Shown piece by piece: positions 4,576 through 38,694 of a stretch of 47,760 nucleotides of DNA (position 1 is the stretch's first letter; every line of letters starts with the position of its first letter). Made by a program: the position numbers and the translations under genes. This DNA comes from Lysobacterales bacterium (GTDB lineage: Bacteria; Pseudomonadota; Gammaproteobacteria; Xanthomonadales; Rhodanobacteraceae). Below the pieces are notes generated by a model, which searched no databases, had not been told where the DNA came from, and worked only from the letters and a program-made list of their open reading frames with translations. The DNA lies in assembly GCA_017305055.1 (NCBI GenBank), contig JAFKMZ010000064.1:1-47760 (forward strand). The letters are read 5' to 3'.

Positions 4576-4661
4576 TGCCGGGAACCTGAGTACGGCACCG
4601 GCGGTCTGCCACTCACCCAACCCCGCCGCGCCAGTCGTACACAGTTCAAGCGCTTTGCGCC

Positions 4662-19387: not shown

Positions 19388-20773
19388 GTCCGTTCGCGAC
19401 GGGAAATCGCCCAGCCTGCGGCGGCGCCTGCTGCTGTTCCTGCTCGTCCCAATGCTGCGCTGCTGCTGCTGGACGGAGCGGTGACCTACTTCGTGGCCTT
19501 GAACTATTCCAACCGGGTGCACGACAGCGGCCTGGAGGACGACCTGCACACGCTCGCGCAGATGTTCCGCCTGAAGCGGACCTCCGGCGAGCTGCCGGAA
19601 GAGGCGCGGTTCCTGCTCGAGTACGAACCCAACGGCCACAACTATTACGCCGTGCGCAGCAGCAAGCACGGGCTGATCAGCGGCAACGGCGCCTTTACGC
19701 GCCGGGAGGCGCCGCCTCCCGACGCGCAGCCCCGCCTCTACGATTCGGAGCTGGACGGCAAGCGCCTGCGCGCCGCCGAGCTGAGCCTGCGCTCGCCAGC
19801 CGATGCGCAGGACATTCTCACCATCGCCATCGCCGAGACACTCAACGACCGGCGCCTGCGCGCGCGGCAGATCCTGCTGCTGACGATACCGCTGCAGACC
19901 ATCTTCATCCTGGGCATCCTCTCGCTGGTGTGGCTGGGGGTCACGCGCGGGCTGCGCATCCTGGAGCCCCTGACCCGGCGCCTGGCGGGGCGCGAGCACG
20001 AGCTGGGTCCGATCAGCGGCGCCGATGTGCCGGTGGAAATCCTGCCGCTGACGCAGACCATCGACGCGCTGTTCGCGCGCCTGAGCACCGTGCTCGAGGC
20101 GCAGAAGCGCTTCATGGCCGACGCCGCCCACCAGCTGCGCACGCCGCTGGCCGGCCTCCGCCTGCACACCGAGCGCGCCCTGTCCGATCCGAGCCCGGAA
20201 ACCCTGCGCGATGCGCTTGAGCACATCCACAAACTCACCGGACGCACCACCCGGACCGCCATGCAGCTGCTGGCGCTGACCCGGGCCAGCAACCCGCCCG
20301 ATGCAACGGACGACTCCACGCACGTGGATCTGGCGCTGCTGGTCCCGGAAATCGTTGGTGCGCGCGTGCAGGAAGCCCTCCATGCCGACATCGACCTGGG
20401 CTACGCCGGCCCCCACGCCGGCGCCATCATCCTGGGCGTCGCCGACAGCCTGCGCGAGCTGCTGGACAACCTCATCGACAATGCGCTGCGCTATGCCGGC
20501 GCACAGGCCCGGGTCACCGTCAGCGTGCGACACCTGGCCGACGGCGGTGTCGCGTTGCAGGTCGAAGATGATGGTCCCGGCGTGCCGCCGGAGCTGTGGT
20601 CGCGCCTGGGCGAGCGCTTCTTCCGCGCGCCCGGAGCGCGCGAGGGCGGCAGTGGCCTGGGACTCGCCATCGTCGGACAGATCGCCAACCAGCATCACGC
20701 CCGGATCGTCTACTCATCGGCAGCCGGCGGCGGCTTGCGCGTCAGCGTGCAGTTCCCGCCCCTGCCTGCGTAG
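19380..20773 (+). pseudogene. Sensor histidine kinase, split by a one-base frameshift
   Basis: The kinase starts at the ATG at 19380 (MTESVRDGKSPSLRRRLLLFLLVPML), but its frame ends at a TGA at 19482-19484. The rest of the protein continues in another frame from about 19481 to 20773. Adding a single G after ATGCTG at about 19457 restores an uninterrupted hydrophobic helix, PMLALLLLDGAVTYFVALNYS, so one base is missing inside a CTG-rich run. The rest looks intact: a periplasmic sensor domain, a second membrane helix (LLLTIPLQTIFILGILSLVWLG), H-box FMADAAHQLRTPLAGL, N-box LLDNLIDNAL, G1 VEDDGPGVP and G2 GGSGLGLAIV. Possible causes are a sequencing error, true inactivation or slippage in the repeat. 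It resembles TctE/QseC kinases with a 2CSK-type N terminus. Confidence 0.85.
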
Positions 20774-20790
20774 TGCGTAGAATGCGGAAG

Positions 20791-20809: not shown

Positions 20810-20948
20810 AGCCTCTTGGACCACACTCGCCGCCATGCTGTATCCGCTGGCCTCCACCCGGCCGCCTCATCGTCCTCTCGCAAGCCACCACCGTGAGACC
20901 CCGTCGTGGCGGCAAACGTCACGTGGTCGCCGTGGGAGCTGAGCCGAC

Positions 20949-22355
20949 GTGCCGTGCACACTCGCCCGCCACTTTGCCATCCTGCTTGGCGCAGCTGCCG
21001 TAGGAGCGTGCGCGACGCGGCCACTCCCGGTGCTCGCACCGTCCGTGCCGGCGCAGTGGCAGCAGGCGATCCAGGCCGACGCCGGCAAGGTTGACCTGCG
21101 CGGCTGGTGGCACGCGTTCCACGACCCGCAACTCGATGCACTGGTCGATACCGCACTGCGCGACAACCTGGACGTAGCCGCCGCACGCGAACACCTGCTG
21201 GCGGCGCGCGCGCTGGAGCGCAGTTCCAGGTACGTCTATTTCCCCGGCCTGCGGGCCAAGACCATGGACGCCATCGACCCGGACGCGCGGGCCACCTACT
21301 TCGTGGCCGGCTTCGACGCGCTGTGGGAAATTCCGCTGTTTGGCCGCGATGTCGCGACCGCCCGCCAGGCGCAGGGCAATCACGACCTGGCGCTGGCGAA
21401 CCTGCAGCAGGCACGCGTCTCGCTGGTGGCCGAAGTGGTGCGCAATTGGCTGGACCTGCGCGCGGCACAGCAGCGCCAGGTCACTCTGGACGCCATGCGC
21501 GGTGAGCGCGAGCGGCAGCTGCAGCTGTGGCAAACCCGCCTGCGCCTGAAGTTGGCCGATCCTGGCGACGTGGCCCAGGCCGAAGCCGCGGCCGCCCAGG
21601 CGCGCGCCGCCGCAGCCGAACCCGCGCAAGCCATGCGCGCCGCCGCCCAGGCGCTGGCGGCGCTGCTCGGACGCGACGAGGCTGACCCGGCCTGGCTCGC
21701 CCCAGGCGCACTGCCTGACCTGGGCGCACTTGCCCTGCGCAGCGCGCCTGCCGACCTCCTGCGCACGCGGCCGGAGATCGTCCACGCCGAAGCCGCCGTG
21801 CTGGCCGCTGCCGGCGATGCCGGCGTCGCCCATGCCGACATGTTCCCCAGCGTCAAGCTTGGCGGGTCGATCGTATGGGCAACCAACATGGCCACCTACC
21901 GCCGGCCCGGCGACAGCGCCATCGCCTCTGCCGGGCCGGTGCTGGACATCCCGCTGTTCGACTGGGGCCTGCGCCGCGCCCAAGACCACGCCAAGGCCCA
22001 CGAACTCCAGGCTGCCGTGTTCGCCTACCGCCAGGCCGTGCTCGATGGCGTGGCCGAAGTGCAGACCGCACTGGGCCGCCTGGCGCTGCAGCGCCAGCAG
22101 GAGCACGAGAGCGCACAGGCCGCAGCCGCGCTCGAACGCGCGCACGCTGCGGTGGCCAGGCGCGTCACCCTGGGCCTGGACAGCCCGCTGCAGCAGCTGG
22201 ACAGCGCGCTGGCCGCAGGCCAGGCCCGGCTCACTGCCATCGATGCGCGCACCGCGCACAGCCTGGCCTTCGTCAGCCTGTACAAGGCGCTCGGCGGCGC
22301 GCCCCTGCCGGCCGTGAGCGACGACGCCCAGGCTGCGGTAGGGCCCCGAAACTGA
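20949..22355 (+). CDS. TolC-family outer-membrane efflux lipoprotein (NodT-like)
   Basis: 468 residues, a trimeric outer-membrane exit duct. The lipoprotein signal has its Cys at residue 21 (AAAVGACATRP). The NodT-type opening follows (WWHAFHDPQLDALVDTALRDNLDVAAAREHLLAARAL), then two outer membrane efflux repeats rich in Ala/Gln helices, with ADLLRTRPEIVHAEAAVLAAAGDAGVAHADMFPSVKLGG as the second-repeat hallmark. It starts at GTG 20949. It is the first gene of a four-gene export operon; the stop overlaps the permease start (TGATG). Confidence 0.92.
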   Translation: MPCTLARHFAILLGAAAVGACATRPLPVLAPSVPAQWQQAIQADAGKVDLRGWWHAFHDPQLDALVDTALRDNLDVAAAREHLLAARALERSSRYVYFPGLRAKTMDAIDPDARATYFVAGFDALWEIPLFGRDVATARQAQGNHDLALANLQQARVSLVAEVVRNWLDLRAAQQRQVTLDAMRGERERQLQLWQTRLRLKLADPGDVAQAEAAAAQARAAAAEPAQAMRAAAQALAALLGRDEADPAWLAPGALPDLGALALRSAPADLLRTRPEIVHAEAAVLAAAGDAGVAHADMFPSVKLGGSIVWATNMATYRRPGDSAIASAGPVLDIPLFDWGLRRAQDHAKAHELQAAVFAYRQAVLDGVAEVQTALGRLALQRQQEHESAQAAAALERAHAAVARRVTLGLDSPLQQLDSALAAGQARLTAIDARTAHSLAFVSLYKALGGAPLPAVSDDAQAAVGPRN

Positions 22356-23488
22356 TGGTCGCGCTGGCACGCAAGACGCTGCTCTACGAATGGCGTCGCT
22401 TTCTCCCGGCGATGGTGGCGATCGGCTTCGCCGGCCTGCTGCAACTGCTGCAGGCCGGGCTGGTGCTGGGCATCTTCGGCAGCGCCAGCGTGTATATCAC
22501 GGGTTCCTCGGCCGACCTGTGGGTGGGCTATCCCGGCACGCAGAGTGTCAACCTGGGCCGGGCGATCAACCCCGACCTGGCCATGCTGCTGCACACGGAC
22601 CCAGCCGTGACCCGGGTGGAACCGTTCTATTGGGTCGATGCCGACTGGCGCGGCCCACGCGGCACGGGTGGCGAATCCGTATTCGTCTCCGGCATCGATC
22701 CGCGGCCGGACGCGCTGATGTTTTCCCAGGCGCTGCCGCCCGCGCTGCGCGCCCGCCTGCGCGAGCCGGACGCAGTCATCGTCGACCGCGCCGACATCAG
22801 CAAGCTCGGCGTACGGGTGGGCGACAGCGCGGCAATCAACGGCCAACGGGTACGCGTGGTCGGCGTGGCCAGGGGCCTGCGCGCGCTTGGTGGAGTGAAC
22901 GTGGTGAGTTCGCTGGATACCGCGCGCGAGCTCGATATCGACCCGGTCGACGCCGGCCGCCCGACCTACCTGGTGGCGCGCCTGCGCGACCCGGGCCAGG
23001 CCGACGTGGTGGCGGCGCGCCTGCGCGGCCGCGGCGGCTTTGGGCCCTACCAGGTATGGACCGCGTCGGATTTCGCCCGCCGCTCGGTGCTGTACTGGAT
23101 GCTCGACACCGGCGCCGGGGCCGGCGTGCTGTTCCTGGCCGGCATCGTGTTCCTGGTCGGCGCGGTGATCACCAGCCAGACCCTGATGGGTGCGGTGGCT
23201 GGCTCGGCGCGGGAATACGCCACGCTCAACGCGCTCGGTGTGGGTGTCGCCAAACTGCGCTGGGTGGTGCTGGAGCAGGCGTTCTGGGTCAGCGCGCTCG
23301 GCCTGCTCGGCGCCACCGTGCTCGGCATCGCGATCATCGCGCTGGCGCGCAGCCAGGACGTGCCTGTGGTACTCGACGCACCCATCACCCTGGCCTGCAT
23401 CGCGCTCGCGGTGGGCCTGGCCGCGGTCTCCGGACTGGTGGCCATGCGCGGCCTGCGTCGCGCCGACCCGGCGGCCCTGCTGCGATGA
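22355..23488 (+). CDS. FtsX-like ABC exporter permease (DevC/MacB type)
   Basis: 377 residues. An N-terminal membrane helix (FLPAMVAIGFAGLLQLLQAGLVLGIF) precedes a large periplasmic MacB_PCD-like domain (about 45-240), then three C-terminal helices of the FtsX domain (GVLFLAGIVFLVGAVITSQTLMGAV, WVSALGLLGATVLGIAIIA, ITLACIALAVGLAAVSGLVA). This 1+3 topology is shared by MacB, LolC/E and DevC. The start overlaps the preceding stop by one base and the end overlaps the ATPase start (ATGA). The cargo is unknown. Confidence 0.92.
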   Translation: MVALARKTLLYEWRRFLPAMVAIGFAGLLQLLQAGLVLGIFGSASVYITGSSADLWVGYPGTQSVNLGRAINPDLAMLLHTDPAVTRVEPFYWVDADWRGPRGTGGESVFVSGIDPRPDALMFSQALPPALRARLREPDAVIVDRADISKLGVRVGDSAAINGQRVRVVGVARGLRALGGVNVVSSLDTARELDIDPVDAGRPTYLVARLRDPGQADVVAARLRGRGGFGPYQVWTASDFARRSVLYWMLDTGAGAGVLFLAGIVFLVGAVITSQTLMGAVAGSAREYATLNALGVGVAKLRWVVLEQAFWVSALGLLGATVLGIAIIALARSQDVPVVLDAPITLACIALAVGLAAVSGLVAMRGLRRADPAALLR

Positions 23489-24255
23489 ACGCGGCGACGA
23501 TGAACGCGGCAGCACCATCCCCGCGCCAGCACGACGGCCCGACCCTGGTGGCCGAGGGCGTGTGCAAGGCCTTCGCTTCCGGGCGCGTGCGTATCCAGGT
23601 GCTGGATGGCCTGTCGCTGCGCATCGAGCCGGCCGAGCTGACCCTGATTTCCGGGCCCTCGGGCTGCGGCAAGAGCACCCTGCTCGCCATCCTGAGCGGC
23701 CTGCAGCCTGTGGACCAGGGTCGGGTGACGGCGCTGGGCAGCGACCTGGGCGGACTCGACCTGCGCGCGCTGGAGCGCTTCCGCCTGCTGCACACCGGCT
23801 TCGTGTTCCAGGGCTTCAACCTGTTTCCCGCGCTGAGCGCGCTGGAGCAGGTGGAGCTGCCGCTGAACTATCTGGACCTGGGACGCAAGGAATCCCGCCA
23901 CCGCGCGGTGCAATCGCTGGACGAGGTGGGCCTGCGGCACCGCATGCGCCTGCGCCCGGCCGAGCTGTCAGGTGGCGAGAAGCAGCGCGTGGCCATTGCC
24001 CGGGCCCTGGCCAAGCAGCCGGACCTGCTGTTTGCGGACGAGCCGACCAGCGCGCTGGACGCGGCCAACGGCCAGATGGTGATCGACATACTGCACCGCA
24101 TCGCCCGCACCCACGGCACCACCGTGCTGTGTGTCAGCCACGATCCGCGCCTGATCCACCATGCCGATCGCGTGCTGGCCATGGAGGACGGCCGCATACT
24201 GAGCGACACGCGGCCGGCAAACCCGGTCACACCGTTTCAAGGATCCGTGACATGA
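23485..24255 (+). CDS. ABC exporter ATP-binding protein (DevA/LolD type)
   Basis: 256 residues. Walker A is GPSGCGKSTLLAILSG, the Q-loop is FVFQGFNLFPALSALEQVELPL, the signature is LSGGEKQRVAIARALA, Walker B is LLFADEPTSALD and the switch His is in LCVSHDPR. The Q-loop and signature wording are those of the LolD/MacB/DevA ATPases that drive FtsX-type permeases. Starts at the ATGA overlap with the permease and overlaps the adaptor gene by 4 nt. Confidence 0.94.
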   Translation: MNAATMNAAAPSPRQHDGPTLVAEGVCKAFASGRVRIQVLDGLSLRIEPAELTLISGPSGCGKSTLLAILSGLQPVDQGRVTALGSDLGGLDLRALERFRLLHTGFVFQGFNLFPALSALEQVELPLNYLDLGRKESRHRAVQSLDEVGLRHRMRLRPAELSGGEKQRVAIARALAKQPDLLFADEPTSALDAANGQMVIDILHRIARTHGTTVLCVSHDPRLIHHADRVLAMEDGRILSDTRPANPVTPFQGSVT

Positions 24256-25184
24256 ATGGCTCGATGTACCCACCGCGGCTCGCTCTGCTCGTCGCCCTGG
24301 CCCTGCTCGTCGGCTGTTCGCACCCGGCGTCGCCCGCGACTGACGCGGTGGAACCCGCGTACGCCGCCGTCGCGCGCGGCCGCATTGCGGTGGAAGGCGG
24401 ATTGCTGCAACTGGACGCGCCGCGCGCAGGCACGCTGGCCAGCGTCACCGTGCACGAGGGCGACCTGGTGGCCAAGGGCGATGTCCTGGCCACGCTCGAT
24501 CCGGAGCCGGCCCGGCTGCAGTTGCAGGCTGCCCAGGCCGAGCTCAGGCAGGCCGAGGCGCAGACCCGGCTGCTCGGCGACAAGCTGGCCCTTGCGCGCC
24601 AGCAGGCCGAACGCCTGACGCAAGCGGCCAAGGCTGGTGCCGGCGGCGTGCAGGATGCCGAGCAGGCGCGTGGCGCGGCCAGCGAGCTTGCGGCCAACCA
24701 GGCCGCAGCCAATGCAGCTGTCGACCTCGCCCGGCAAAAGCTGGCTGCCGCACGTTACGAGCTCGGCCTGCGCACACTGCGCGCACCAATCGCGGCCCGC
24801 GTGGTGCACGTGCAGGCCCAGCCAGGCGCGAGCGTGGCGCCGCAATCGGGCCCCCTCTTCACCCTGCTCCCGCGCACCGCACCCATCGTGCGGGCCGAGC
24901 TCAGCGTTTCCATGCTCGACGCGGTGCGCCCAGGCATGCCGGCCATCGTGAGCGCCGACGACCTGGGCGGCGCACAGAGCTGGCCGGCCCATGTGCTGCG
25001 CGTGGGCGACGTCGTCGGTGCCTCGACGCTCGATGACGACCCGCAGCAGCGTGCCAACGACCGCACGGTGACCTGCGTGCTCGCCTTTGACCAGCCGCAG
25101 CAGCTGCGCATCGGGCAGCGGGTACTGGTGCGCTTCGGGGCGCCGGCCGCGGCGGCTTCCACGCGAAAGGCAGCTGAAAAGTGA
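24252..25184 (+). CDS. HlyD-family periplasmic adaptor lipoprotein
   Basis: 310 residues. The lipobox Cys is residue 22 (LALLVGCSHPA). A biotinyl-lipoyl half motif (LQLDAPRAGTLASVTVHEGDLVAKGDVLATLD) leads into a long Ala/Gln coiled coil (about 80-160), then the second half motif (TLRAPIAARVVHVQAQPGASV) and a beta-barrel domain. Such adaptors join an inner-membrane ABC transporter to a TolC-type duct, so genes 20949-25184 encode a complete tripartite machine. It is the last gene before a 71-nt gap. Confidence 0.92.
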   Translation: MNGSMYPPRLALLVALALLVGCSHPASPATDAVEPAYAAVARGRIAVEGGLLQLDAPRAGTLASVTVHEGDLVAKGDVLATLDPEPARLQLQAAQAELRQAEAQTRLLGDKLALARQQAERLTQAAKAGAGGVQDAEQARGAASELAANQAAANAAVDLARQKLAAARYELGLRTLRAPIAARVVHVQAQPGASVAPQSGPLFTLLPRTAPIVRAELSVSMLDAVRPGMPAIVSADDLGGAQSWPAHVLRVGDVVGASTLDDDPQQRANDRTVTCVLAFDQPQQLRIGQRVLVRFGAPAAAASTRKAAEK

Positions 25185-25255
25185 CGCTGGCATGCTGCCC
25201 GGGTGCGGATTAGGAGCCTGGACGGCATCCACCGCCCAAGCTCCCAGGTGCCCAC

Positions 25256-26092
25256 GTGATCAAAGCTACCGATTTCCTGCTCGAGGGCGACCGCCGCGGC
25301 GTGCTGCTGATCCACGGGCTCACCGGCACGCCGCTGGAGATGCGCCTGCTGGCCAAGGGCCTCAACAGCGCAGGCTTCACCGTGCATTGCATGCAACTGG
25401 CCGGGCACTGCGGCGACGTCGAGGATCTACTCGCCACTGGTTGGCGCGACTGGTACACCAGCGTGGAACAGGCCGCCGACCGCCTGCTGCAGCGCGTCGA
25501 TCATCTGTTTGTCGGCGGCCTGTCGATGGGTGCGCTGCTTGCGCTCAAGCTGGCCGCCGACCGCCCGGACCAGGTCGCCGGTGTGGGCGTGTACGGCGCC
25601 ACGTTCCGCTATGACGGCTGGAGCATTCCCGGGATTGCGCGCCTGGCATTCATGCTGCCGCTGGCGACGAGGCTCGGCCTGGGACGGCGCCGCATGTTCT
25701 TCGAGCGGCCGCCCTATGGCTTGCGTGACGAGCGGCTGCGCGCGCACGTCAGCGCCGCCATGCAGGGCAGCGACAGCAGCGTGGCCGGCCTGCCCGGCAA
25801 TCCCTGGCCATCGCTGGCCGAGCTGTTCCGGCTCTCCCGGCAGGTGCGCCGCCAGTTGCCGCGGGTGCGCGCGCCGTGTCTGGTGGCGCACGCCAGCGAG
25901 GACGACGTGGCCAGCCTGGACAACGCCAGACTGGTGCTGCGCGAGGTGCGCGGCCCAGCCGAACTGCTGCTGCTCGATGACAGCTATCACATGATCACCA
26001 TCGACCGGCAGCGCCATTTGCTGGCCGAGCGCTCGGTGCGCTTCTTCGACCGCATCGTGGCGGCGCAGGCGGCCGACCGCGCGGCGGCCTAG
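25256..26092 (+). CDS. Alpha/beta-hydrolase, carboxylesterase/lipase-like
   Basis: 278 residues. It belongs to the monoacylglycerol lipase/carboxylesterase branch: oxyanion segment LLIHGLTGTPLEMRLLAKGL, nucleophile elbow VGGLSMGALLAL, acid in VAHASEDDVASLDN and the catalytic His in LDDSYHMITIDRQR. No signal peptide, so cytoplasmic. Starts at GTG 25256. It is followed after 8 nt by two small transporter genes and an aminotransferase gene, all in the same direction, so it may act on an ester or acyl intermediate of that unit (inference). Confidence 0.88.
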   Translation: MIKATDFLLEGDRRGVLLIHGLTGTPLEMRLLAKGLNSAGFTVHCMQLAGHCGDVEDLLATGWRDWYTSVEQAADRLLQRVDHLFVGGLSMGALLALKLAADRPDQVAGVGVYGATFRYDGWSIPGIARLAFMLPLATRLGLGRRRMFFERPPYGLRDERLRAHVSAAMQGSDSSVAGLPGNPWPSLAELFRLSRQVRRQLPRVRAPCLVAHASEDDVASLDNARLVLREVRGPAELLLLDDSYHMITIDRQRHLLAERSVRFFDRIVAAQAADRAAA

Positions 26093-26100
26093 GCCAGCCA

Positions 26101-26460
26101 ATGTCGCCGCTCGCCCTCGCGCTGTGGCTGGCCAACATCGTGCTGGACACCGGCGGCCAGCTGGCCTTCAAGGCCGCGGCCGGCGACCCGGCTGCCGGCG
26201 ATGGCATGGCGCGCTGGCGCTACATGCTGACGCGGCGCTGGCTGTGGCTGGGCGTGGCTTGCTACGTCGGCGAATTCCTGGCCTGGATCGCCTTCCTGTC
26301 GCTGTTGCCGCTGTCGCGCGCCATCCTGCTCGGCGCGATCAACATCGTGGCCGTCATGCTCGCCGGACGCCTGCTGTTCGGCGAGCGCCTGACCCGCCTG
26401 CGCGTCGCCGGCATGCTGCTGGTCACGCTCGGCGTGGCCATCGTGGGGCTGGGCGAATGA
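26101..26460 (+). CDS. SMR/EamA-type half transporter, first of a pair
   Basis: 119 residues with four membrane helices: LALALWLANIVLDTGGQLAFKAAA, LWLGVACYVGEFLAWIAFLSLLPLS, AILLGAINIVAVMLAGRLLFGE and LRVAGMLLVTLGVAIVGLGE. Size and layout match small multidrug resistance proteins and the ArnE/ArnF lipid-carrier flippase subunits. It overlaps the next gene by 4 nt (ATGA). Paired genes of this kind usually make a heterodimer. Confidence 0.85.
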   Translation: MSPLALALWLANIVLDTGGQLAFKAAAGDPAAGDGMARWRYMLTRRWLWLGVACYVGEFLAWIAFLSLLPLSRAILLGAINIVAVMLAGRLLFGERLTRLRVAGMLLVTLGVAIVGLGE

Positions 26461-26897
26461 GCGCACGGCGGCACAACCGGGCCGTGTTCTACCTGGTGGG
26501 CTTCGGCCTGCTGATGACGTTCGACACCTTCGGCGCGATCTGCTTCAAGCTGGCCGGCATGCACGCGCTGCCGGTGGAGGCAAACGTCGACTGGCTGCTG
26601 CGGTTGTTCCGCCACCCCTGGGTATATGGCGCGGTGCTCGGCTATATCGGTGCCTTCTTCACCTGGATGAGCCTGCTCAAGCACGCGCCAATCGGCCCGG
26701 CCTTCGCCGCCTCGCACCTGGAGGTGGTCAGTGTGACCCTGATCTCGATCTGGCTGTTCCACGAGCCGCTCACGGCCGCCAAGGTGATCGGCGCGCTGGC
26801 GATCCTGGCCGGCATCGCCTGCCTGGCCCTGGCCGAGCGCGAGCAGGCCGACAGCGAGTCGGCCGGCAGCGGACCCTCCGCAACCCGGGCCGGCTGA
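26457..26897 (+). CDS. SMR/EamA-type half transporter, second of a pair
   Basis: 146 residues with four membrane helices (VFYLVGFGLLMTFDTFGAICFKLAG, WVYGAVLGYIGAFFTWMSLLKHAPIG, FAASHLEVVSVTLISIWLFHEPL, VIGALAILAGIACLALAE) and a short polar tail. Translationally coupled to the first half transporter. The pair could flip a lipid-linked or acylated product, as ArnEF does, or export a small amphiphile. The DegT-type aminotransferase gene follows three bases after its stop. Confidence 0.85.
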   Translation: MSARRHNRAVFYLVGFGLLMTFDTFGAICFKLAGMHALPVEANVDWLLRLFRHPWVYGAVLGYIGAFFTWMSLLKHAPIGPAFAASHLEVVSVTLISIWLFHEPLTAAKVIGALAILAGIACLALAEREQADSESAGSGPSATRAG

Positions 26898-26900
26898 GCC

Positions 26901-28124
26901 GTGACGACGCGACACCATCCCGAAGTCCCCCCGACCGCCGGCCTGCCGTTGCGCGCCAGCGACCTGTGGCCGACGCGGCCGACATTGGCCGCGACACTGG
27001 CCGAGCAGCTCGACCTGCCCGAACCGCTGCTGGAATGCTCGGGCACCGCCGCGCTGCTGGTGGCCTTGCACACGCTTCGCCGGCAGGCGCCGCAGCGGCG
27101 CGTGGTGGTGGTGCCGGCCTATACCTGCCCCCTGGTCGCCATTACCGTGCACAGCCTCGGCCTGGAGCTGCGCCTGTGCGACACGCGCCCTGGCCACTTC
27201 GAGATGGACCCGCAGGCGCTGGCGCAGGTCTGCGGCAGCGACACCCTGGCGATCGTGCCGGCCCATCTCGGCGGCCTGGTCGCCGACCTGGACGGCGTGC
27301 TGGACGTGGCCAAAACCTGTGGCGCGCGGGTGATCGAGGATGCCGCGCAAGCCATGGGCGCACGCGACCACGGGCAAAGTGTCGGCCTGCGCGGCGACAT
27401 CGGCTTCTTCAGCCTGGCTGCTGGCAAGGGCCTGTCGATCTACGAGGGCGGGCTGTTGATCGCGCGCGATCCCGGGCTGCGCGCGGCGCTCACGCGCACG
27501 CACGCGGAGATCGTGCCGCGGCGGCCCGCCTGGGAACTGCGCCGCAGCCTGGAACTGCTCGGCCTGGCGCTGCTCTACCGGCCGGCTGGCCTCGGCCTGG
27601 CGTATGGCGGTCCGCTGCGCCGCGCCCTGCACCGCGGCGACCCGGTCGCCGCCGTGGGCGACGCGTTCCCGCCGACCATCCCGCTGCACCGCGTGGGCCG
27701 CTGGCGGCAGGGTGTCGGGACACGGGCCGCGGCGCGCCTGCCCGCGTTCGTGCAGCAGCTGCGCACGCAGGCAGCGCAGCGCATCGCGCAGCTGCGGGAC
27801 ATGCCGGGCCTCCAGGTGCTTGAAGCGGCGCCGGGCACCACGGCGAGCTGGCCATTCCTGATGCTGCAGGCGGCCACGGCAGCGCGATGTGAGGCGATCC
27901 TGGCCCAGCTGTGGACCGCAGGCCTCGGTGTCAGCCGCCTGTTTGTGCACGCCCTGCCCGACTACGCCTACCTCGCCGACCGCGTCCCACGCACGCCCAT
28001 GCCAAACGCCCGCAACTTCGCCGCCCGCACGCTGACCATCAGCAACAGCCCCTGGCTCGACGACGACGCGTTCGCGCATGTCTGCACCGTTCTGCAGCGG
28101 TCGGCGGGCGACCGCGCCGACTGA
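26901..28124 (+). CDS. DegT/DnrJ/EryC1/StrS-like PLP aminotransferase
   Basis: 407 residues, fold type I PLP enzyme. Landmarks are LLECSGTAALLVALHTLRR, VVVPAYTCPLVAITVHSLG, the cofactor Asp in VIEDAAQAMGAR and the probable Schiff-base Lys in FFSLAAGKGLSIYEGG. The family usually aminates keto-sugars, but some members act on other small carbonyl compounds; the substrate here is not evident. It starts at GTG 26901 and closes the hydrolase/transporter unit. Confidence 0.85.
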   Translation: MTTRHHPEVPPTAGLPLRASDLWPTRPTLAATLAEQLDLPEPLLECSGTAALLVALHTLRRQAPQRRVVVVPAYTCPLVAITVHSLGLELRLCDTRPGHFEMDPQALAQVCGSDTLAIVPAHLGGLVADLDGVLDVAKTCGARVIEDAAQAMGARDHGQSVGLRGDIGFFSLAAGKGLSIYEGGLLIARDPGLRAALTRTHAEIVPRRPAWELRRSLELLGLALLYRPAGLGLAYGGPLRRALHRGDPVAAVGDAFPPTIPLHRVGRWRQGVGTRAAARLPAFVQQLRTQAAQRIAQLRDMPGLQVLEAAPGTTASWPFLMLQAATAARCEAILAQLWTAGLGVSRLFVHALPDYAYLADRVPRTPMPNARNFAARTLTISNSPWLDDDAFAHVCTVLQRSAGDRAD

Positions 28125-32854: not shown

Positions 32855-33754
32855 TCAGGGGTTGCCGTGACGAGCAGACGCCGACGCCATCGGCATGGCG
32901 TCGATGGCCTGCAGCAATTGCAGGTTGAGCGCGTGCTGCTGCGCCTGCCACTGGTCGAGCTGGCGTTCGTCGATCTCGGGCTGCTGGTCGATGGCCGACA
33001 GGCGGCGCTTCCACCAGCTGCGGTAGCGGTAGCTGGAGACCTCGCCGGTGATGTCGCTGCCGACCAGGCCGCCGCACAGGCTGGCGATGATGGCCATGGC
33101 GTGCTCCAGCAACATGTGGCCCTGGTCCCAGTTGGTGCGCGCCACCTGCGCGGCGAAGACGTCCTTGTCGATGGAAAGGTAGGTCGGCAGCGGCTGCGCG
33201 CGCTGCGCATCACAGAAGGCCTCGACCAGTGCATCGATGCAGGCAAAGCCATGGAACGCGTGCGCCAGTCCCATGCGCCCGGCCCAGCCGACGTCCACGC
33301 CGGCGCTCCAGTAGCTGAGCCTGCCGCGGCGCAGCGGGGTCAGATAGTTTTCCCAGGCATGGCCGCCGCCGATGTCCGTCGAGCCGATGCCGACGACATG
33401 CACGTGGCGCACGCGTGGCAATGCCGCCACCCGGCGCACCCAGGAACCGCAGTGCACGCCGAACGGGAAGCGCATGTTGTCGGGATGGTTGTCCAGCACC
33501 ACCACCTGGAACTGGCCGTTGCCGGGCACGCGCTCGATCAGCGGCCAGCTCAGATGGTGGAAGTCGCCACTGCCCAGCATGATGGTGCCGTAATCGGTGG
33601 GCAGCGTGTCGTCCAACGCGTGGCGGAAGCGCCGCAGCGCGGCGAGCGAGCAACCGAACCGCAGCGCCTCCTGCCAGTGCTCGAGCGGGATCACCAGCCG
33701 CTGTGGCAGGGCGCCGACGGAGTGGTCGAGATCGAGTATCACCGTACGCTGCAT
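32855..33754 (-). CDS. Arginase-fold (ureohydrolase-like) protein
   Basis: 299 residues. Three segments match the metal-binding motifs of the arginase/agmatinase fold: LGSGDFHHLSW (His, about 66-67), VVLDNHPDNMRFP (D88, H90, D92; DAHxD in arginases) and YLSIDKDVFA (D196, D198; SxDxD). The canonical text between them differs, so the substrate may not be arginine or agmatine. The family also includes guanidino and N-acyl-amide hydrolases. It starts at the ATG at 33754, 151 nt after the GNAT-like gene, with a hairpin element between. It is probably the last member of the carrier-protein cluster (inference). Confidence 0.8.
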   Translation of the reverse strand: MQRTVILDLDHSVGALPQRLVIPLEHWQEALRFGCSLAALRRFRHALDDTLPTDYGTIMLGSGDFHHLSWPLIERVPGNGQFQVVVLDNHPDNMRFPFGVHCGSWVRRVAALPRVRHVHVVGIGSTDIGGGHAWENYLTPLRRGRLSYWSAGVDVGWAGRMGLAHAFHGFACIDALVEAFCDAQRAQPLPTYLSIDKDVFAAQVARTNWDQGHMLLEHAMAIIASLCGGLVGSDITGEVSSYRYRSWWKRRLSAIDQQPEIDERQLDQWQAQQHALNLQLLQAIDAMPMASASARHGNP

Positions 33755-33770
33755 GCCGGACCCTCACCTT

Positions 33771-33881
33771 CCGTCATCCCCGCGAAAGCGGGGATCCAGC
33801 GTCGTCGAGTTTGCCTGAGCGTTCCTAAACCACGCTCAGGCCCCCAATGGCACTGGTTTCCCGCTTTCGCAGGGATGACGG
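33771..33881. repeat. Palindromic intergenic element (REP/MITE-like)
   Basis: A 111-bp element has 31-nt inverted ends with about four mismatches. The left end starts CCGTCATCCCCGCGAAAGCG (33771-33801) and the right end is its reverse complement (33851-33881). A second inverted repeat, CCTGAGCG/CGCTCAGG, lies inside (33814-33840). GTCATCCCCGCGAAAGCGGGGATCC-type ends are common dispersed repeats in many high-GC proteobacteria (general knowledge, not searched). It sits inside the minus-strand cluster, between the GNAT-like and arginase-like genes. Confidence 0.8.
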
Positions 33882-33905
33882 GACATGGAAGTGCCGCGTC
33901 ATTCG

Positions 33906-34973
33906 TCATACGGCATCCCCGGCACCGTGCGGCTGCAGCGGTTCGGCCTCAAACAGGTGCGCGCAGCGGCGGAACGCAAAGCGCAGCAGCGGGTTGCGCA
34001 GGTACACCGCGTGGCGCGTGGTGCTGAAGCGCGCGCCGAGCTGCCGCTTGATCCCGCTGTCGGTCCAGCCGGCCACGTAGTGGCTGAGACCGTGGCGCCG
34101 CGCGTATTCCAGGTTCTCCATCCAGCTCACCACGTACAGGTTGTACTCGTGCGCCTGCGGATAGGCCAGGCCGATGTACTTGTCCACCAGCATGCCGCGA
34201 TACACGTAGCAGAGGTTCCAGCCGATCAATTGGCCGTCCATGCGATACGTGAAGACCAGGCCACCACTCCCGGCGTCGCCGAGCACGGCGCCAAGGAACG
34301 CCTCGCTCAGCAGGTCGAAGTGGATCTCGCTCTGCGCGTACACCTGGCGATACAGTGCGTAGAACTCCGCAACCACGACCGGGTCCGCGAACAGCGCTTC
34401 CCCCGTGCGCAGGCAGTCGATGTCCAGCACCTCACGGGCGCGCAGCTTGCGGCGGATATTCTTGCGCCGGCTGCGCGACAGCCCGGCCAGATAGTCGTCC
34501 GTCGAGGCGAAATCGATCGGCACCCAGGCCAGCGCCATGCCCTCGAGCAGCACGCAGCCGCGCGCCGCGCAGGCCCGCGCGAACGCCTGCGACTGCGCAC
34601 TCTCGGCGGCGGAGAGCAGCGGCGTGGCGCCGGCAATATCCTTCACCACCAGCAGCGCGCGCTCGCGCCGCCAGGTATCGAGCACTTCCGCAGCCAGCTG
34701 TTCCGGTGACACGTCGGCCGGCAACGGCACGAATTCAGTGACCGTGGCACCGACGAAGCGCGTGCGCCAGCGCAGGACGCGTCCCCACAGGCGATAGCCA
34801 GGCAGCTGCTGCACGCGGCGGCGCGCCGCGTCATCGAGCGTGGTCAACAGATCGTACGGCGCCACGAACGTGGGCAGGCCGCAGGCCATCCGCGCGGCTT
34901 CGAAGCCAACCGGCGGATGAGCGAGAAACTGGTCCAGCAATGATTCCGGTTCGAGTTGCGCGATGTAGTCCAT
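33906..34973 (-). CDS. FemAB/GNAT-like acyltransferase (BioF2-type)
   Basis: 355 residues, a tandem-GNAT-fold protein like the 'peptidogalycan biosynthesis/recognition' and BioF2-like acyltransferases. These N-acylate an amino group or add an aminoacyl unit. Matching segments are FASTDDYLAGLSRSRRKNIRRKLRARE, EFYALYRQVYAQSEIHFDLLSEAFL, TYRMDGQLIGWNLCYVYRGMLVDKYIGL and LEYARRHGLSHYVAGWTDSGIKRQLG. The start is the ATG at 34973 (MDYIAQLEPESLL); upstream codons in frame look non-coding. It lies 37 nt downstream of the ketosynthase gene in the same operon. Donor and acceptor are unknown; an acyl-ACP donor is attractive given the neighbours. Confidence 0.82.
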   Translation of the reverse strand: MDYIAQLEPESLLDQFLAHPPVGFEAARMACGLPTFVAPYDLLTTLDDAARRRVQQLPGYRLWGRVLRWRTRFVGATVTEFVPLPADVSPEQLAAEVLDTWRRERALLVVKDIAGATPLLSAAESAQSQAFARACAARGCVLLEGMALAWVPIDFASTDDYLAGLSRSRRKNIRRKLRAREVLDIDCLRTGEALFADPVVVAEFYALYRQVYAQSEIHFDLLSEAFLGAVLGDAGSGGLVFTYRMDGQLIGWNLCYVYRGMLVDKYIGLAYPQAHEYNLYVVSWMENLEYARRHGLSHYVAGWTDSGIKRQLGARFSTTRHAVYLRNPLLRFAFRRCAHLFEAEPLQPHGAGDAV

Positions 34974-35010
34974 GCACGGCCTGCCCGATCGCGACGCGTC
35001 CGGCGGCGCC

Positions 35011-36243
35011 TCAGCCGGGCGCGCGGATCGCCAGCACGGCATTGAGGCCGCCGAACGCGAAAGAATTGCTCAAGGCCGCCCGCACGCGCATCGGCCGCGC
35101 CGCGTTCGGGGCATAGTCCAGGTCGCAGGCCGGATCGGCCGCGACGTAGTTCATGGTGGGCGGCACCACACCATCGCGCATCGCCCCCAGCACGGCCACC
35201 AGCTCCAGCGCACCGGAGGCGCCCAGGGCGTGGCCGTGCATGGACTTGGTCGAGGACACGACCAGCCTGGCGGCATACGCGCCAAACACGCGGTGGATGG
35301 CCTCGGTCTCGGCCACGTCATTGGCCTGCGTACCGGTGCCATGGGCGTTGATGTAGTCGACGTCCTCCGGCGCCAGGCCGGCATCGGCGAGCGCCTGCCC
35401 CATGGCGCGCGCGCTGCCGGCCGGATCGGGCGCGGCAATGTCACCTGCATCCGCGCTCATGCCGACACCCGCGAGCTCGCCCAGTATCGTCGCGCCGCGT
35501 GCACGCGCATGCGCCTTGGACTCCAGTACGAAGATGGCGGCGCCCTCGCCCAGCACCAGGCCGCGGCGGCCCTGGCTGAACGGGCGACAGGTGTCGTCGG
35601 CCACGACGCGCATGGCCTCCCAGGCCTTGAGCGAACCGAAGCCGAGGCAGGCCTCGGTGCCACCGCTCACGACCACGTCGACCAGGCCGGAACGGATCAT
35701 CGCCGCCGCCTGGGCCAGCGCGTGGTTGGCCGAGGCGCAGGCGCTGGCCACGGCAAACGTCGGGCCGTGCAGGCCGTGCGCAATGCTGATCTGGCTGGCC
35801 GGCGCATTCACCATCAGCCGCACGATGGTGAAGGGGTGCACGCGCCCGGTGTGCTCCTCGTAGATCAGGCGGCTCTGTTCGTCATGCGTGGTTTCGCCGC
35901 CGACGCCGGTGCCGATGATGACGCCAGTGCGCAGTGCCAGGTCGCCGGCGCTGAAATCGAGTCCGGACTGCGCGATTGCCTCGTTTGCCGCGGCCAGCGC
36001 GAGCTGCGAGCAGCGATCCAGCAACGGCAGCGTGCGCTCGCTGCAGTGCTGTGCCGGATCGAAGGTTTCCGGCACCTGCGCGGCGACGCGGATGCGCATC
36101 TTGTCGGCGCGCGCATGGCGCAGCGGCCGGATGCCGGAGCGGCCTTCACGCAAGCCCTGCCACAGGCGTTCGGCGCCTTCGCCGAATGCGCTGACTGCGC
36201 CCATGCCGGTGATCACGACACCCGAAGCAGGCGGCTGGGTCAC
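35011..36243 (-). CDS. Stand-alone beta-ketoacyl-ACP synthase (KAS II-like)
   Basis: 410 residues, thiolase-fold condensing enzyme of the FabF type. The catalytic triad is complete: C169 in ASACASANHAL, H301 in INAHGTGTQAND and H338 in STKSMHGHALGAS. The C-terminal SNSFAFGGLNAVLAI is typical. It should decarboxylate and condense malonyl-ACP onto an acyl thioester. It is not in a fab operon: no reductase, dehydratase or FabD is nearby, so it is probably a specialised-pathway enzyme. The start is GTG at 36243, overlapping the ACP stop (GTGA). Confidence 0.93.
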   Translation of the reverse strand: MTQPPASGVVITGMGAVSAFGEGAERLWQGLREGRSGIRPLRHARADKMRIRVAAQVPETFDPAQHCSERTLPLLDRCSQLALAAANEAIAQSGLDFSAGDLALRTGVIIGTGVGGETTHDEQSRLIYEEHTGRVHPFTIVRLMVNAPASQISIAHGLHGPTFAVASACASANHALAQAAAMIRSGLVDVVVSGGTEACLGFGSLKAWEAMRVVADDTCRPFSQGRRGLVLGEGAAIFVLESKAHARARGATILGELAGVGMSADAGDIAAPDPAGSARAMGQALADAGLAPEDVDYINAHGTGTQANDVAETEAIHRVFGAYAARLVVSSTKSMHGHALGASGALELVAVLGAMRDGVVPPTMNYVAADPACDLDYAPNAARPMRVRAALSNSFAFGGLNAVLAIRAPG

Positions 36244-36524
36244 GCGGCAGCGTCCGGACCGGCGGCCTTCGCCGCCAGTGCCTTGTCCACCGCGTCGACC
36301 AGGCTTTGCACCGTATCGGTGTCGAAGTTCGCACCCTGGTCCGGGATGGTGATGTCGAAATGCGCCTCGATGTCGAAGATCATCTCGATGGCGTCCAGCG
36401 AGGCGATCCCGAAATCCTTCAAGGTGGACTCGGGCTTGATCGCCGCCGCCTCGACCTTGGCCTGCTTGGCGACGATGGCGATCACCTGGCTGGCAACTTC
36501 GTCCGGGGAAAGGTTTTCGGTCAT
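36240..36524 (-). CDS. Acyl carrier protein, pathway-specific
   Basis: 94 residues. The phosphopantetheine Ser is S42 in DFGIASLDAIEMIFDIEAHF; the usual GxDS is changed to GIAS. The chain is acidic with a four-helix ACP pattern and an Ala-rich tail. The ATG at 36524 has GGAG six nt upstream. It overlaps the ketosynthase gene and follows the aminotransferase gene by 46 nt. Its divergent Ser motif and context suggest it is not the housekeeping AcpP, and that it carries the intermediates of this cluster (inference). Confidence 0.92.
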   Translation of the reverse strand: MTENLSPDEVASQVIAIVAKQAKVEAAAIKPESTLKDFGIASLDAIEMIFDIEAHFDITIPDQGANFDTDTVQSLVDAVDKALAAKAAGPDAAA

Positions 36525-36570
36525 GGCTATCTCCGCTTTGCGCGATGCGCGGACGCATCCGCGCGGCAGC

Positions 36571-37977
36571 TCACAGGCTCCGTTTCGCCTTGGTGATGAG
36601 CTGGTCCAGCAGCATGATAGCCAAGTCGATTTCCTCGTCGGTGATTTCCAGCGAGGGCGCCAGCGTGATGACGTTCTTGTACCAGCCACCCACATCGAGC
36701 ACGAGTCCGATCTTTTTTCCCTGGTGCGTGAGGTCGCCGGCCAGGCCGATGTCGACCATGCGGTCGAGCAGCGCCTTGTTCGGGGTGTAGCCGTCCTCGG
36801 TGCAAATCTCGGCACGCAGGGCAAGGCCGAGGCCGTCCACGTCGCCGATTTCCCTGTGCCGCTGCTGCAGGTCGCGCAGGCCCGCGAGGAAGTGTGCGCC
36901 CTTGCGCGGCACGCTGGTCTCGTAGTCCAGTTCCTTGCCCATGCGCAGCACTTCGAGGCCGAGCGCCGTACCCAGCGGGTTGGAGTTGAACGTGGAGTGC
37001 GTCGAGCCCGGCGGAAACACCGTGGGATTGATCAGCTCCTCGCGCGCCCACAGCCCCGACAGGGGATTGAGACCGTTGGTCAGCGCCTTGCCGAACACGA
37101 GCACGTCGGGCTTGACCCCGAAGTTCTCGATCGACCACAGCTTGCCGGTGCGCCAGAAGCCCATCTGGATCTCGTCGACCACGAGCAGGATGCCGTACTG
37201 GTCCAACACCTTCTTCAGGTCCCTGAAGAAATTCCGTGGCGGCACCACATAGCCGCCGGTGCCCTGGATCGGCTCGACGTAGAACGCCGCGTACTCGCAC
37301 TGGTTGGTCTTGGGATCCCACACGCCGTTGTATTCGGTCTCGAACAGTCGCGCGAACTGGTGCACACAGCTGTCCGAGTATTCCTCCGCGCTCATCCCCT
37401 TCGGCCGGCGGAACGGATAGGGGAACGGCAGGAACATCGCGCGCTCGCCGAAGTGGCCGAAGCGGCGGCGGTAGCGGTAGCTCGACGTGATCGACGAGGC
37501 GCCCAGGGTGCGGCCGTGGTAGCCGCCCTCGAACGCGAACATCAGGCTCTTGCCTTTGGTGTAGTTGCGCACCAGCTTGAGCGAATCCTCGATTGCCTGC
37601 GCGCCGCCCACGTTGAAGTGCACGCGGCCGTCCAAGCCGAACTTCGCCTTGGCGTCCAGTGCCACGGCCTTGGCCAGCTCGATGCGGGTCTGGTGCAGGT
37701 ACTGGCTGGCCACCTGCGGCAGCAGGTCGATCTGCGCCTTGAGCGTCTCATTCAGGCGCTTGTTGGCGTAGCCGAAGTTGACCGCCGAGTACCACATCTG
37801 CAGGTCCAGGAACGGCACGCCGGCGGTGTCATACATGTAGCTGCCGTTGCAGCCGCGGAAGATCTTCGGCGGATCGACGTAATGCACGGTGTCACCGAAG
37901 GAGCTGTACTTCGCCTCGTCGGCGAGCAGCTCGGCATCATCGATCGCCAGGCTGGCGTGCTTGTCAAAAACGTTCAT
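36571..37977 (-). CDS. Class III PLP aminotransferase
   Basis: 468 residues, omega-aminotransferase/ornithine aminotransferase-like fold I enzyme. The chain shows FNVGGAQAIEDSLKLVRNYT (phosphate-binding region), FEGGYHGRTLGASSITSSYRYRR, VEPIQGTGGYVVPP, the cofactor Asp in LLVVDEIQMGFWRTGKLW (D268) and the Schiff-base Lys K297 in LVFGKALTNGLNPLSG. Class III enzymes transfer distal amino groups, and some act on carrier-protein-bound substrates. It lies 18 nt downstream of the HAD gene and 46 nt upstream of the ACP gene, so one transcript is likely. Confidence 0.93.
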   Translation of the reverse strand: MNVFDKHASLAIDDAELLADEAKYSSFGDTVHYVDPPKIFRGCNGSYMYDTAGVPFLDLQMWYSAVNFGYANKRLNETLKAQIDLLPQVASQYLHQTRIELAKAVALDAKAKFGLDGRVHFNVGGAQAIEDSLKLVRNYTKGKSLMFAFEGGYHGRTLGASSITSSYRYRRRFGHFGERAMFLPFPYPFRRPKGMSAEEYSDSCVHQFARLFETEYNGVWDPKTNQCEYAAFYVEPIQGTGGYVVPPRNFFRDLKKVLDQYGILLVVDEIQMGFWRTGKLWSIENFGVKPDVLVFGKALTNGLNPLSGLWAREELINPTVFPPGSTHSTFNSNPLGTALGLEVLRMGKELDYETSVPRKGAHFLAGLRDLQQRHREIGDVDGLGLALRAEICTEDGYTPNKALLDRMVDIGLAGDLTHQGKKIGLVLDVGGWYKNVITLAPSLEITDEEIDLAIMLLDQLITKAKRSL

Positions 37978-37995
37978 GCGGGCCTCGAGCTGGGT

Positions 37996-38694
37996 TCAAA
38001 CGGCAAGTGCTGCCGTAAACGCTGGAGCCGTCTCGGCGTCCAGGCGGCCTGCGATCAGCGACGGCAGGAATTCAAGGGCATCCTCGAAGCCGGTGATCGG
38101 TACATACGGAATGCCGGCGGCACGACAGTGCTCGATCAGGCGATGTTTGGCGAAGACGAAATCGACCTGGTTCGCTGCGCAGAAATCCGATGCGCCATCA
38201 CCAATCAGCAACGTACGCGCACCGCCGCTGCGCGCCTGCGCGACGCACGCGCACTTGCAGGTGCCGCTGGCGCAGCCCGCAGCCTGGTAGGGCGAACCCA
38301 ATTGCCAGCGCTGCGGCGGCGTGGCTGGTGCCAGATGGTTCGCGGCGACCGGCAGATTGTCCAGGCCATAACGGCCGAGGATCTGCTGTATGGCGTAATC
38401 GAGTCCGTCGCTGACCACGCGGATCGGCACGCCAAGCGCACGCGCCTTGGCCACGAAAGCGGGGAAGGCGTGGTCGATCCACAGGCTGGACAGGTGCGTA
38501 TCCAGCTCCTCCCGGCTCATGTCCAGCAAGGCCACCTGCGCGCTCATGCATGCGCGCGAACCGATGCGGCCTGCGCGCCAGTCACGCTCCAGTCTTTCCC
38601 AGCCGGGTCGGCCATAGCGGTCGAGCAGCGAGTCGATGACGTCTTCCACGGCAATCGTGCCGTCGAAATCGCACAGGATGGTCCAGGGAGACAT
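37996..38694 (-). CDS. HAD-superfamily phosphatase, MtnX-like
   Basis: 232 residues. HAD motif I is WTILCDFDGTI (D9, D11), motif II is IRVVSDGLDYAI and motif III is TLLIGDGASDFCAA. The all-helical type-I cap after motif I and the overall length match MtnX/SerB-like phosphatases. A Cys-rich insertion, CASGTCKCACV, may bind a metal. No other methionine-salvage gene is nearby, so MtnX activity is not implied; dephosphorylation of a pathway intermediate is likelier. The start at 38694 is chosen because motif I follows at once; an ATG at 38727 adds 11 residues. First gene of the carrier-protein operon. Confidence 0.87.
   Translation of the reverse strand: MSPWTILCDFDGTIAVEDVIDSLLDRYGRPGWERLERDWRAGRIGSRACMSAQVALLDMSREELDTHLSSLWIDHAFPAFVAKARALGVPIRVVSDGLDYAIQQILGRYGLDNLPVAANHLAPATPPQRWQLGSPYQAAGCASGTCKCACVAQARSGGARTLLIGDGASDFCAANQVDFVFAKHRLIEHCRAAGIPYVPITGFEDALEFLPSLIAGRLDAETAPAFTAALAV

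What the first reader, a model, noticed from the sequence alone, without database searches (positions are those of the whole stretch)
32855..38694. Compact carrier-protein pathway: HAD + class III aminotransferase + ACP + ketosynthase + FemAB/GNAT acyltransferase + arginase-fold hydrolase
Five minus-strand genes with gaps of 46 nt or less (one GTGA overlap), plus an arginase-fold gene beyond a repeat, form a set that is neither fatty acid synthesis (no FabD, FabG or FabZ) nor any polyketide or aryl-polyene cluster I know. The ketosynthase keeps a full Cys-His-His triad, the ACP keeps its Ser (S42) in an altered GIAS motif, and the aminotransferase keeps its PLP Lys (K297). Inference: an ACP-bound beta-keto intermediate is built by one condensation, aminated, N-acylated by the FemAB/GNAT protein and trimmed by the phosphatase and hydrolase, giving a small acylated amine or amino acid.
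Basis: partly seen in the sequence, partly recalled or inferred. Interest (0 to 1): 0.78.

Follow-up and report, generated by a model that had tools for sequence, protein, structure and literature searches.

The report
Half of an envelope aminolipid-type locus
The six genes are real and form half of a larger, widespread and apparently undescribed gene set that probably builds an amine-bearing, lipid-like molecule and moves it to the cell surface, although its product has never been seen.

Summary
The six genes, gaps and catalytic residues are confirmed. They are half of a larger set. The rest lies at 18713-28124, plus strand: a PmrAB/QseBC-like two-component system, a DevBCA/TolC-like exporter, an alpha/beta hydrolase, two ArnE/F-like half-flippases and a DegT aminotransferase (nearest models, below cut-offs). 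In relatives the halves often adjoin, or are split.

In 147 family genomes all 105 with the GNAT gene carry exactly one of two aminotransferases: the window's type (82) or a glutamate-semialdehyde-mutase-like one (23). The two never co-occur, and in the 23 genomes the second sits beside the same HAD phosphatase. Aminotransferase and phosphatase are therefore probably one step pair.

ACP and ketosynthase go together (31 of 31 loci) but are missing near many aminotransferases, so amination of the ketosynthase product is unlikely to be the general route. Best reading: a regulated pathway that makes, flips and exports an N-acylated amino compound, probably an aminolipid. The chemistry is inferred; the C3 phosphate substrate is a guess. 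The rows shown by nine paper searches held no description.

The parts
37996..38694 (-). HAD: MtnX-like HAD-IB phosphatase
   Evidence: TIGR01489 92.7 bits over cut-off 81.55; MtnX equivalog TIGR03333 70.6 under 303.2; D9, D11, S95, D166, D170 conserved in 90 rows
36571..37977 (-). AT3: class III PLP aminotransferase
   Evidence: PF00202 236.9 bits; K297 kept; T438 and T240 stand where E. coli GabT has R398 and E211 (alignment to 1szk; numbering and roles recalled); close family in 26 of 398 phylum genomes
36240..36524 (-). ACP: acyl carrier protein, GTGA overlap with KS
   Evidence: PF00550 42.1 bits; Ser42 in 38 of 38 rows
35011..36243 (-). KS: FabF-like ketosynthase with Cys-His-His
   Evidence: PF00109 and PF02801; NF005589 418.3 over 387, TIGR03150 445 under 493.75; C169, H301, H336 conserved in 38 rows
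33906..34973 (-). GNAT: FemAB/GNAT-type N-acyltransferase-like protein
   Evidence: PF13480 46.5 and PF04339 41 bits, both over cut-off; 105 of 147 family genomes
33771..33881 (.). 29-nt inverted repeat (53 nt between the arms) between GNAT and ARG
32855..33754 (-). ARG: arginase/ureohydrolase-fold hydrolase
18713..19387 (+). RR: OmpR-type response regulator, nearest model PmrA
   Evidence: 218.2 bits, cut-off 330
19481..20773 (+). HK: sensor kinase with 2CSK_N domain, nearest models QseC and PmrB; start uncertain
20949..22355 (+). OMF: TolC/NodT-type outer-membrane factor
   Evidence: PF02321; TIGR01845 204 under 210.05
22355..23488 (+). FtsX/MacB-type permease, only NCBIfam hit DevC
   Evidence: 87.2 bits, cut-off 290.35
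23485..24255 (+). ABC ATPase, nearest model DevA
   Evidence: 218.7 bits, cut-off 295.8
24252..25184 (+). HlyD-type adaptor; nearest model RND_mfp, DevB is the fifth hit
   Evidence: DevB 53.5 bits, cut-off 129
25256..26092 (+). ABH: alpha/beta hydrolase of the Hydrolase_4 family
   Evidence: PF12146 73.5 bits; S90, D216, D217, H245 conserved in 67 rows
26101..26460 (+). EAM1: half-size EamA, nearest model ArnE
   Evidence: 27.6 bits, cut-off 92
26457..26897 (+). EAM2: half-size EamA, nearest model ArnF
   Evidence: 27.8 bits, cut-off 99
26901..28124 (+). DEGT: DegT/DnrJ/EryC1 aminotransferase
   Evidence: PF01041 139.4 bits; K176 conserved in 58 rows; not universal (49 of 80 loci)

Best explanation
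The six genes are part of a locus that makes an N-acylated amino compound, most likely an aminolipid, and sends it to the outer envelope under a two-component system of the PmrAB/QseBC type. Steps: (1) the class III aminotransferase puts an amine on a small carbonyl compound and the neighbouring HAD phosphatase removes its phosphate; a C3 compound such as dihydroxyacetone or glyceraldehyde phosphate would fit. (2) The GNAT/FemAB-like protein N-acylates the amine; ACP and KS, where present, supply a special acyl chain, otherwise primary fatty acid synthesis does. (3) ARG, ABH and, in some lineages, DegT tailor it. (4) The two half-size EamA proteins flip it across the inner membrane as ArnE/F do. 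(5) The DevBCA/TolC-like pump carries it outward. Shown here: gene content, linkage, co-occurrence, the exchange of the aminotransferase beside a retained phosphatase, conserved catalytic residues, the ARG fold. Inferred: every chemical step, the substrate above all.
For: Of 80 named AT3 loci, GNAT and ARG are in the same 64, ACP and KS in the same 31, EAM1 and EAM2 together in 50 of the 51 that have either. Many loci hold both halves side by side. In 147 family genomes AT3 (96) and the GSAM-like enzyme (24) never co-occur (0, expected 15.7) and all 105 GNAT genomes have one of them. The HAD is beside the GSAM-like gene in 23 of 23 AT3-less, GNAT-bearing genomes; on the HAD tree the partner changes at least 5 times. 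Lipid and export: DevC, DevA, ArnE and ArnF are the nearest models of four proteins; DevBCA-HgdD exports heterocyst glycolipids (PMC6161253, passages); one Rhizobium version has a fatty acid desaturase and a cyclopropane-synthase-type enzyme in the same gene run. Amination plus dephosphorylation of a C3 phosphate has a precedent in RtxA (PMC3222319, passages).
Against: No product is known. The DevBCA, ArnE/F and PmrA/B matches are all below curated cut-offs, and EamA/SMR proteins also move drugs and metabolites. The exporter and the regulators are not always in reach of AT3: OMF 24, FtsX 39, ATPase 36, HlyD 36, RR 30, HK 33 of 80 loci at my bit thresholds. GNAT is absent in 14 and ARG in 21 of 96 AT3 genomes, so N-acylation by GNAT is not universal. 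HAD was not found in 8 of 80 AT3 loci, 5 of them with both flanks. The Agrobacterium plasmid version lacks the desaturase and cyclopropane genes. In several split genomes GNAT-ARG lie apart from ACP-KS. No gene of the locus looks like a glycosyl- or phospho-transferase that would build a head group. The GNAT structure could not be predicted.
Confidence: 0.45

Rival explanations
1. One reading: the KS makes a beta-ketoacyl-ACP by one condensation, the aminotransferase turns it into a beta-amino acyl-ACP, the GNAT N-acylates it and hydrolases release it.
For: 113 of 115 KS-bearing family genomes have one of the two aminotransferases. AT3 lacks the alpha-carboxylate Arg (T438), which would suit a large non-amino-acid substrate. 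From memory, the AMT domain of mycosubtilin synthase is GSAM-like and aminates a beta-ketoacyl-ACP.
Against: HAD and AT3 occur without ACP and KS in reach in many loci (34 with GNAT) and 7 of 96 AT3 genomes have no such KS at E<=1e-120, one of them a single-contig genome (G143, contig number; locus L080). The route leaves the phosphatase, the most frequent neighbour of the aminotransferase, without a job.
Confidence: 0.2
2. A small soluble specialised metabolite (a polyamine- or guanidine-derived amine) is made, and the EamA halves and the DevBCA/TolC-like pump are its exporter and self-protection.
For: The arginase fold keeps all metal-ligand motifs and an acidic residue at 238 (80 of 80 rows); the best folds are arginases, agmatinases and other amidinohydrolases; EAM2 also has weak matches to SMR drug and spermidine exporters.
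Against: ACP and KS, and in one Rhizobium version desaturase and cyclopropane-type genes, point to an acyl chain; in the family sample one of the two aminotransferases is in 120 of 147 genomes, more than expected for a typical specialised metabolite cluster.
Confidence: 0.25
3. Ordinary neighbours: unrelated metabolic genes that happen to lie together.
For: Each family taken alone is common.
Against: Conserved but rearranged linkage across alpha-, beta- and gammaproteobacteria and strong co-occurrence.
Confidence: 0.02

Closest known systems
arn operon (Ara4N modification of lipid A) with PmrAB
   Same: A two-component system whose nearest models are PmrA and QseC/PmrB, a DegT aminotransferase, and paired half-size EamA proteins whose nearest models are ArnE and ArnF
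   Different: All those matches are below the curated cut-offs; none of the 16 genes is an ArnA, ArnC or ArnT type; ACP, KS, HAD, AT3, ARG and GNAT have no counterpart in arn (recalled)
DevBCA-HgdD glycolipid exporter of heterocysts
   Same: HlyD adaptor, FtsX-type permease, ATPase and TolC-type factor in one gene run; DevC and DevA are the nearest models; DevBCA exports glycolipids (PMC6161253, passages)
   Different: Below the DevA, DevB and DevC cut-offs; no glycolipid synthase recognised beside it
RtxA-type dihydroxyacetone-phosphate amination to serinol
   Same: Amination of a small phosphorylated ketone followed by dephosphorylation (PMC3222319, passages), as the aminotransferase-HAD pair suggests
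   Different: RtxA was not compared with AT3; the substrate of AT3 is unknown
Glutamate-1-semialdehyde 2,1-aminomutase (GSAM) family
   Same: A paralogue takes the place of AT3 beside the HAD in 23 of 23 genomes
   Different: AT3 itself is only 20% identical to it over 305 columns; the paralogue passes NF000818 (453.3 over 398) but not the hemL equivalog (430.9 under 527.3)
Arginase/agmatinase (ureohydrolase) family
   Different: 12-19% identity in the rows listed, no NCBIfam match at E<=0.001, no phmmer hit in the PDB at E<=1

Membership tests
arn operon / Ara4N pathway | ArnE/ArnF equivalog score for the half-flippases | tested here: not met
   27.6 and 27.8 bits against 92 and 99; no protein of the whole genome passes the ArnE cut-off
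arn operon / Ara4N pathway | ArnA, ArnC and ArnT type enzymes in the locus | tested here: not met
   None among the 16 locus proteins scanned; one PMT-type protein lies elsewhere in the genome
DevBCA exporter | DevA, DevB, DevC curated scores | tested here: not met
   218.7 of 295.8, 53.5 of 129, 87.2 of 290.35
DevBCA exporter | Adaptor, FtsX-type permease, ATPase and TolC-type factor in one gene run | tested here: met
   (overlaps of 1 and 4 nt)
PmrAB two-component system | PmrA and PmrB equivalog scores | tested here: not met
   218.2 of 330; 137.8 of 314
Class III aminotransferase | PF00202 and PLP lysine | tested here: met
   236.9 bits, K297
Class III aminotransferase, GABA/ornithine type | alpha-carboxylate Arg and gate Glu (roles recalled) | tested here: not met
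   T438 and T240 at those columns in the alignment to 1szk, an E. coli GabT entry; 1szk itself reads Ser at the gate column, so the Glu there is recalled
MtnX-like HAD-IB phosphatase | TIGR01489 subfamily score | tested here: met
   92.7 over 81.55
MtnX (methionine salvage) | TIGR03333 equivalog score | tested here: not met
   70.6 of 303.2
Arginase/ureohydrolase superfamily | Fold | tested here: met
Arginase/ureohydrolase superfamily | Binuclear metal-ligand motifs | tested here: met
   H66/H67, D88, H90, D92, D196, D198 conserved; metal binding itself not tested, motif roles recalled
Arginase/ureohydrolase superfamily | Urea-releasing activity | not testable with these tools
   needs an assay
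Type II fatty acid or polyketide synthase | Malonyl transferase, ketoreductase and dehydratase genes | tested here: not met
   None among the 16 locus proteins

The most novel reading that the evidence does not exclude
A widespread, regulated pathway in Pseudomonadota for a new class of surface aminolipid: a phosphorylated C3 carbonyl is aminated by either of two interchangeable class III enzymes, dephosphorylated, N-acylated, flipped by an ArnE/F-like pair and exported by a DevBCA-like pump.
Probability: 0.3. Interest if true: 0.8.

Novelty: new variant of a known kind. Interest (0 to 1): 0.62.

Why it matters
If the reading holds, many environmental, plant-associated and animal-associated Gram-negative bacteria make an undescribed envelope amine next to a PmrAB/QseBC-like regulator. 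That could bear on envelope charge and cationic peptide tolerance, and on the unassigned aminolipids of taxonomic descriptions (one Dyella paper reports an unidentified aminolipid: PMC12789092, one passage; the link is conjecture). The exchange of the aminotransferase beside a constant phosphatase gives a direct biochemical test: two enzymes of different subfamilies should catalyse the same reaction.

Tried and rejected
Chance linkage: rejected. HAD as the methionine-salvage phosphatase MtnX: rejected by score. EamA pair as the Ara4N flippase: not supported by score. ACP-bound amination as the general route: weakened, not excluded. Phylum samples gave the GNAT profile in 14 of 200 genomes and the ARG profile in 6 of 200; the 6 ARG genomes are all among the AT3 genomes, and of the 14 GNAT genomes one (G293) is not. 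The distant GNAT hits (8 of the 14 have a best E between 1e-34 and 1e-50) may be other FemAB-like proteins, and I do not count them as members; one AT3 genome of that sample (G149) has neither GNAT nor ARG.

Nine paper searches: the rows shown held no description of the set. Six asked for it or for parts of it, the others for serinol, DevBCA and polar lipids. Searches matched 291 and 107 papers, of which 15 and 12 were shown; I saw titles and starts of abstracts. Four papers were opened, by passages only: PMC6161253, PMC3222319, PMC12789092, PMC13203713. A table in the last, on Stenotrophomonas pavanii, lists two arnE and one arnB genes; they may be EAM1, EAM2 and DegT of this locus, which I did not test.

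Limits of the counts. Presence means a tblastn hit over bit thresholds that I set, with at least 60% of the length, within at most 10 kb of AT3; 66 of the 80 loci have both flanks. Fisher p-values ignore relatedness; the HAD tree is a partial answer. It is a quick tree with some weak branches; 7 near-identical Stenotrophomonas rows of 126 were dropped and the window copy was added (120 rows). The absence of other folds from the list is not taken as evidence.
Full report
What is there. The six reported genes are present with the stated order, gaps and catalytic residues. The HAD passes the cut-off of the MtnX-like HAD-IB subfamily but not that of MtnX itself. The ketosynthase is FabF-like with an intact triad, the ACP keeps Ser42, the aminotransferase keeps K297, and the last gene has an arginase fold.

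The locus is larger. On the plus strand, 4730 nt from the arginase gene, lies a gene run at 18713-28124. It encodes an OmpR-type regulator (nearest model PmrA), a sensor kinase (QseC, PmrB), a TolC/NodT-type factor, an FtsX-type permease (DevC), an ATPase (DevA), a HlyD adaptor (RND_mfp first, DevB fifth), an alpha/beta hydrolase, two half-size EamA proteins (ArnE, ArnF) and a DegT aminotransferase. None of the DevBCA, ArnE/F or PmrA/B matches reaches its curated cut-off, so these names say what the proteins resemble, not what they are. A subtilase autotransporter (28636-31551) and a tRNA-synthetase-like gene that I read as gluQ (31859-32737) lie between the two halves.

Relatives. These include Rhodanobacter, Dyella, Luteibacter, Stenotrophomonas, Xanthomonas, Variovorax, Paracidovorax, Delftia and Bartonella. 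Mapping 19 window proteins onto these and 24 further loci shows both halves side by side in many of them, in varying order. Of the 80, HAD is found in 72, GNAT and ARG in the same 64, ACP and KS in the same 31, ABH in 49, EAM1 in 51, EAM2 in 50, DegT in 49, OMF in 24, FtsX in 39, ATPase in 36, HlyD in 36, RR in 30 and HK in 33. Only 66 of the 80 have both 10-kb flanks, so absences near contig ends are not firm.

Split genomes. In 20 stretches that I chose from family genomes, ACP-KS stay beside ABH or the EamA pair, and HAD-AT lie beside the exporter, in most cases where these genes were seen. GNAT-ARG are less constant: they are with the EamA pair and DegT in some genomes (L192, L207, L208, L210) but apart from ACP-KS in others (G008, G057, G128; in G084 GNAT is apart and ARG was not found). 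In two Dyella-like genomes of genus g18 (G017, G125) ABH-EAM1-EAM2-ACP-KS are together without GNAT and ARG. So the set behaves as a few exchangeable modules.

Co-occurrence in 147 genomes of the family. Found: ARG 100 (14 of them weak hits at 34-42% identity), AT3 96, KS 115, GNAT 105. ARG and GNAT share 98 genomes; 24 genomes have none of AT3, the GSAM-like enzyme, GNAT, ARG and KS. GNAT occurs without AT3 in 23 genomes. In all 23 the HAD is present, beside a GSAM-like class III aminotransferase that is 80-91% identical to the example (the example's own genome is one of the 23) and 20% identical to AT3. Over the 147 genomes the GSAM-like enzyme is in 24 and AT3 in 96 with no overlap (expected 15.7), and every one of the 105 GNAT genomes has one of them. 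On a HAD tree the partner changes at least five times, with some weak branches; one swap is between sisters with SH-aLRT support 93 (L212 and L239). HAD and aminotransferase lie within 400 bp in 112 of 126 rows, 89 of 103 with AT3 and 23 of 23 with the GSAM-like enzyme. I read this as replacement of one enzyme by another that does the same job beside a retained phosphatase.

What this says about function. A phosphatase that keeps its place while its neighbouring aminotransferase is exchanged suggests consecutive steps on one small phosphorylated compound, as SerC and SerB do (recalled) and as RtxA does with dihydroxyacetone phosphate (PMC3222319, passages). AT3 has Thr where E. coli GabT has the Arg that binds alpha-carboxylates and Thr at the column of the gate Glu (alignment; roles recalled), so its substrate or donor is probably unusual. 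ACP and KS are a pair and sit with the hydrolase or the half-flippases in the split genomes; because HAD-AT occur without them, they more likely supply an acyl chain than the amination substrate. One Rhizobium plasmid version carries a fatty acid desaturase and a cyclopropane-synthase-type protein in the same gene run, which also points to an acyl chain; the Agrobacterium version looked at lacks both. The half-flippase pair and the DevBCA-like pump point to transport of a lipid-like product; DevBCA-HgdD exports glycolipids (PMC6161253, passages).

Results against. GNAT is missing from 14 and ARG from 21 of 96 AT3 genomes. HAD was not found in 8 of 80 AT3 loci, 5 of them with both flanks. ACP-KS, DegT, the exporter and the regulators are out of reach or absent in many loci. 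So besides the aminotransferase slot no single gene is universal, and the product may differ between lineages. No head-group transferase was recognised. All chemistry is inference.

Verdict. The rows shown by the paper searches, which cover open-licence papers only, held no description.

Noticed in passing
window 28636-31551 (+): Subtilase-type autotransporter (PF00082, PF12951, PF03797) between the two halves of the locus.
   Followed up: no
window 1797-5036 (-): One open frame joins an amino acid kinase with ACT domain to a PLP decarboxylase of the Orn/DAP/Arg family, which looks like a fused aspartokinase and diaminopimelate decarboxylase (the naming is recalled).
   Followed up: no
window 33771-33881: 29-nt imperfect inverted repeat between GNAT and ARG, possibly a dispersed repeat; copies elsewhere in the genome were not counted.
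   Followed up: partly
window 19388-20773: The sensor kinase frame has no ATG near its expected start; the first usable start found after the in-frame stop is GTG 19481, which would shorten its N-terminus.
   Followed up: partly
L192:16791-18176 (-) and the same neighbourhood in L212-L234: A GSAM-like class III aminotransferase replaces AT3 beside the HAD in 23 of 23 AT3-less, GNAT-bearing family genomes.
   Followed up: yes
L104:10001 and 12728: A second stretch, 60% identical to AT3, lies about 1.3 kb behind the first in one Rhodanobacter genome.
   Followed up: no
L187, L188, L189: Distant FemAB/GNAT-like genes (25-27% identity to the window's) beside paired EamA halves, apart from any close AT3; perhaps a wider pairing of FemAB-like enzymes and half-flippases.
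   Followed up: partly
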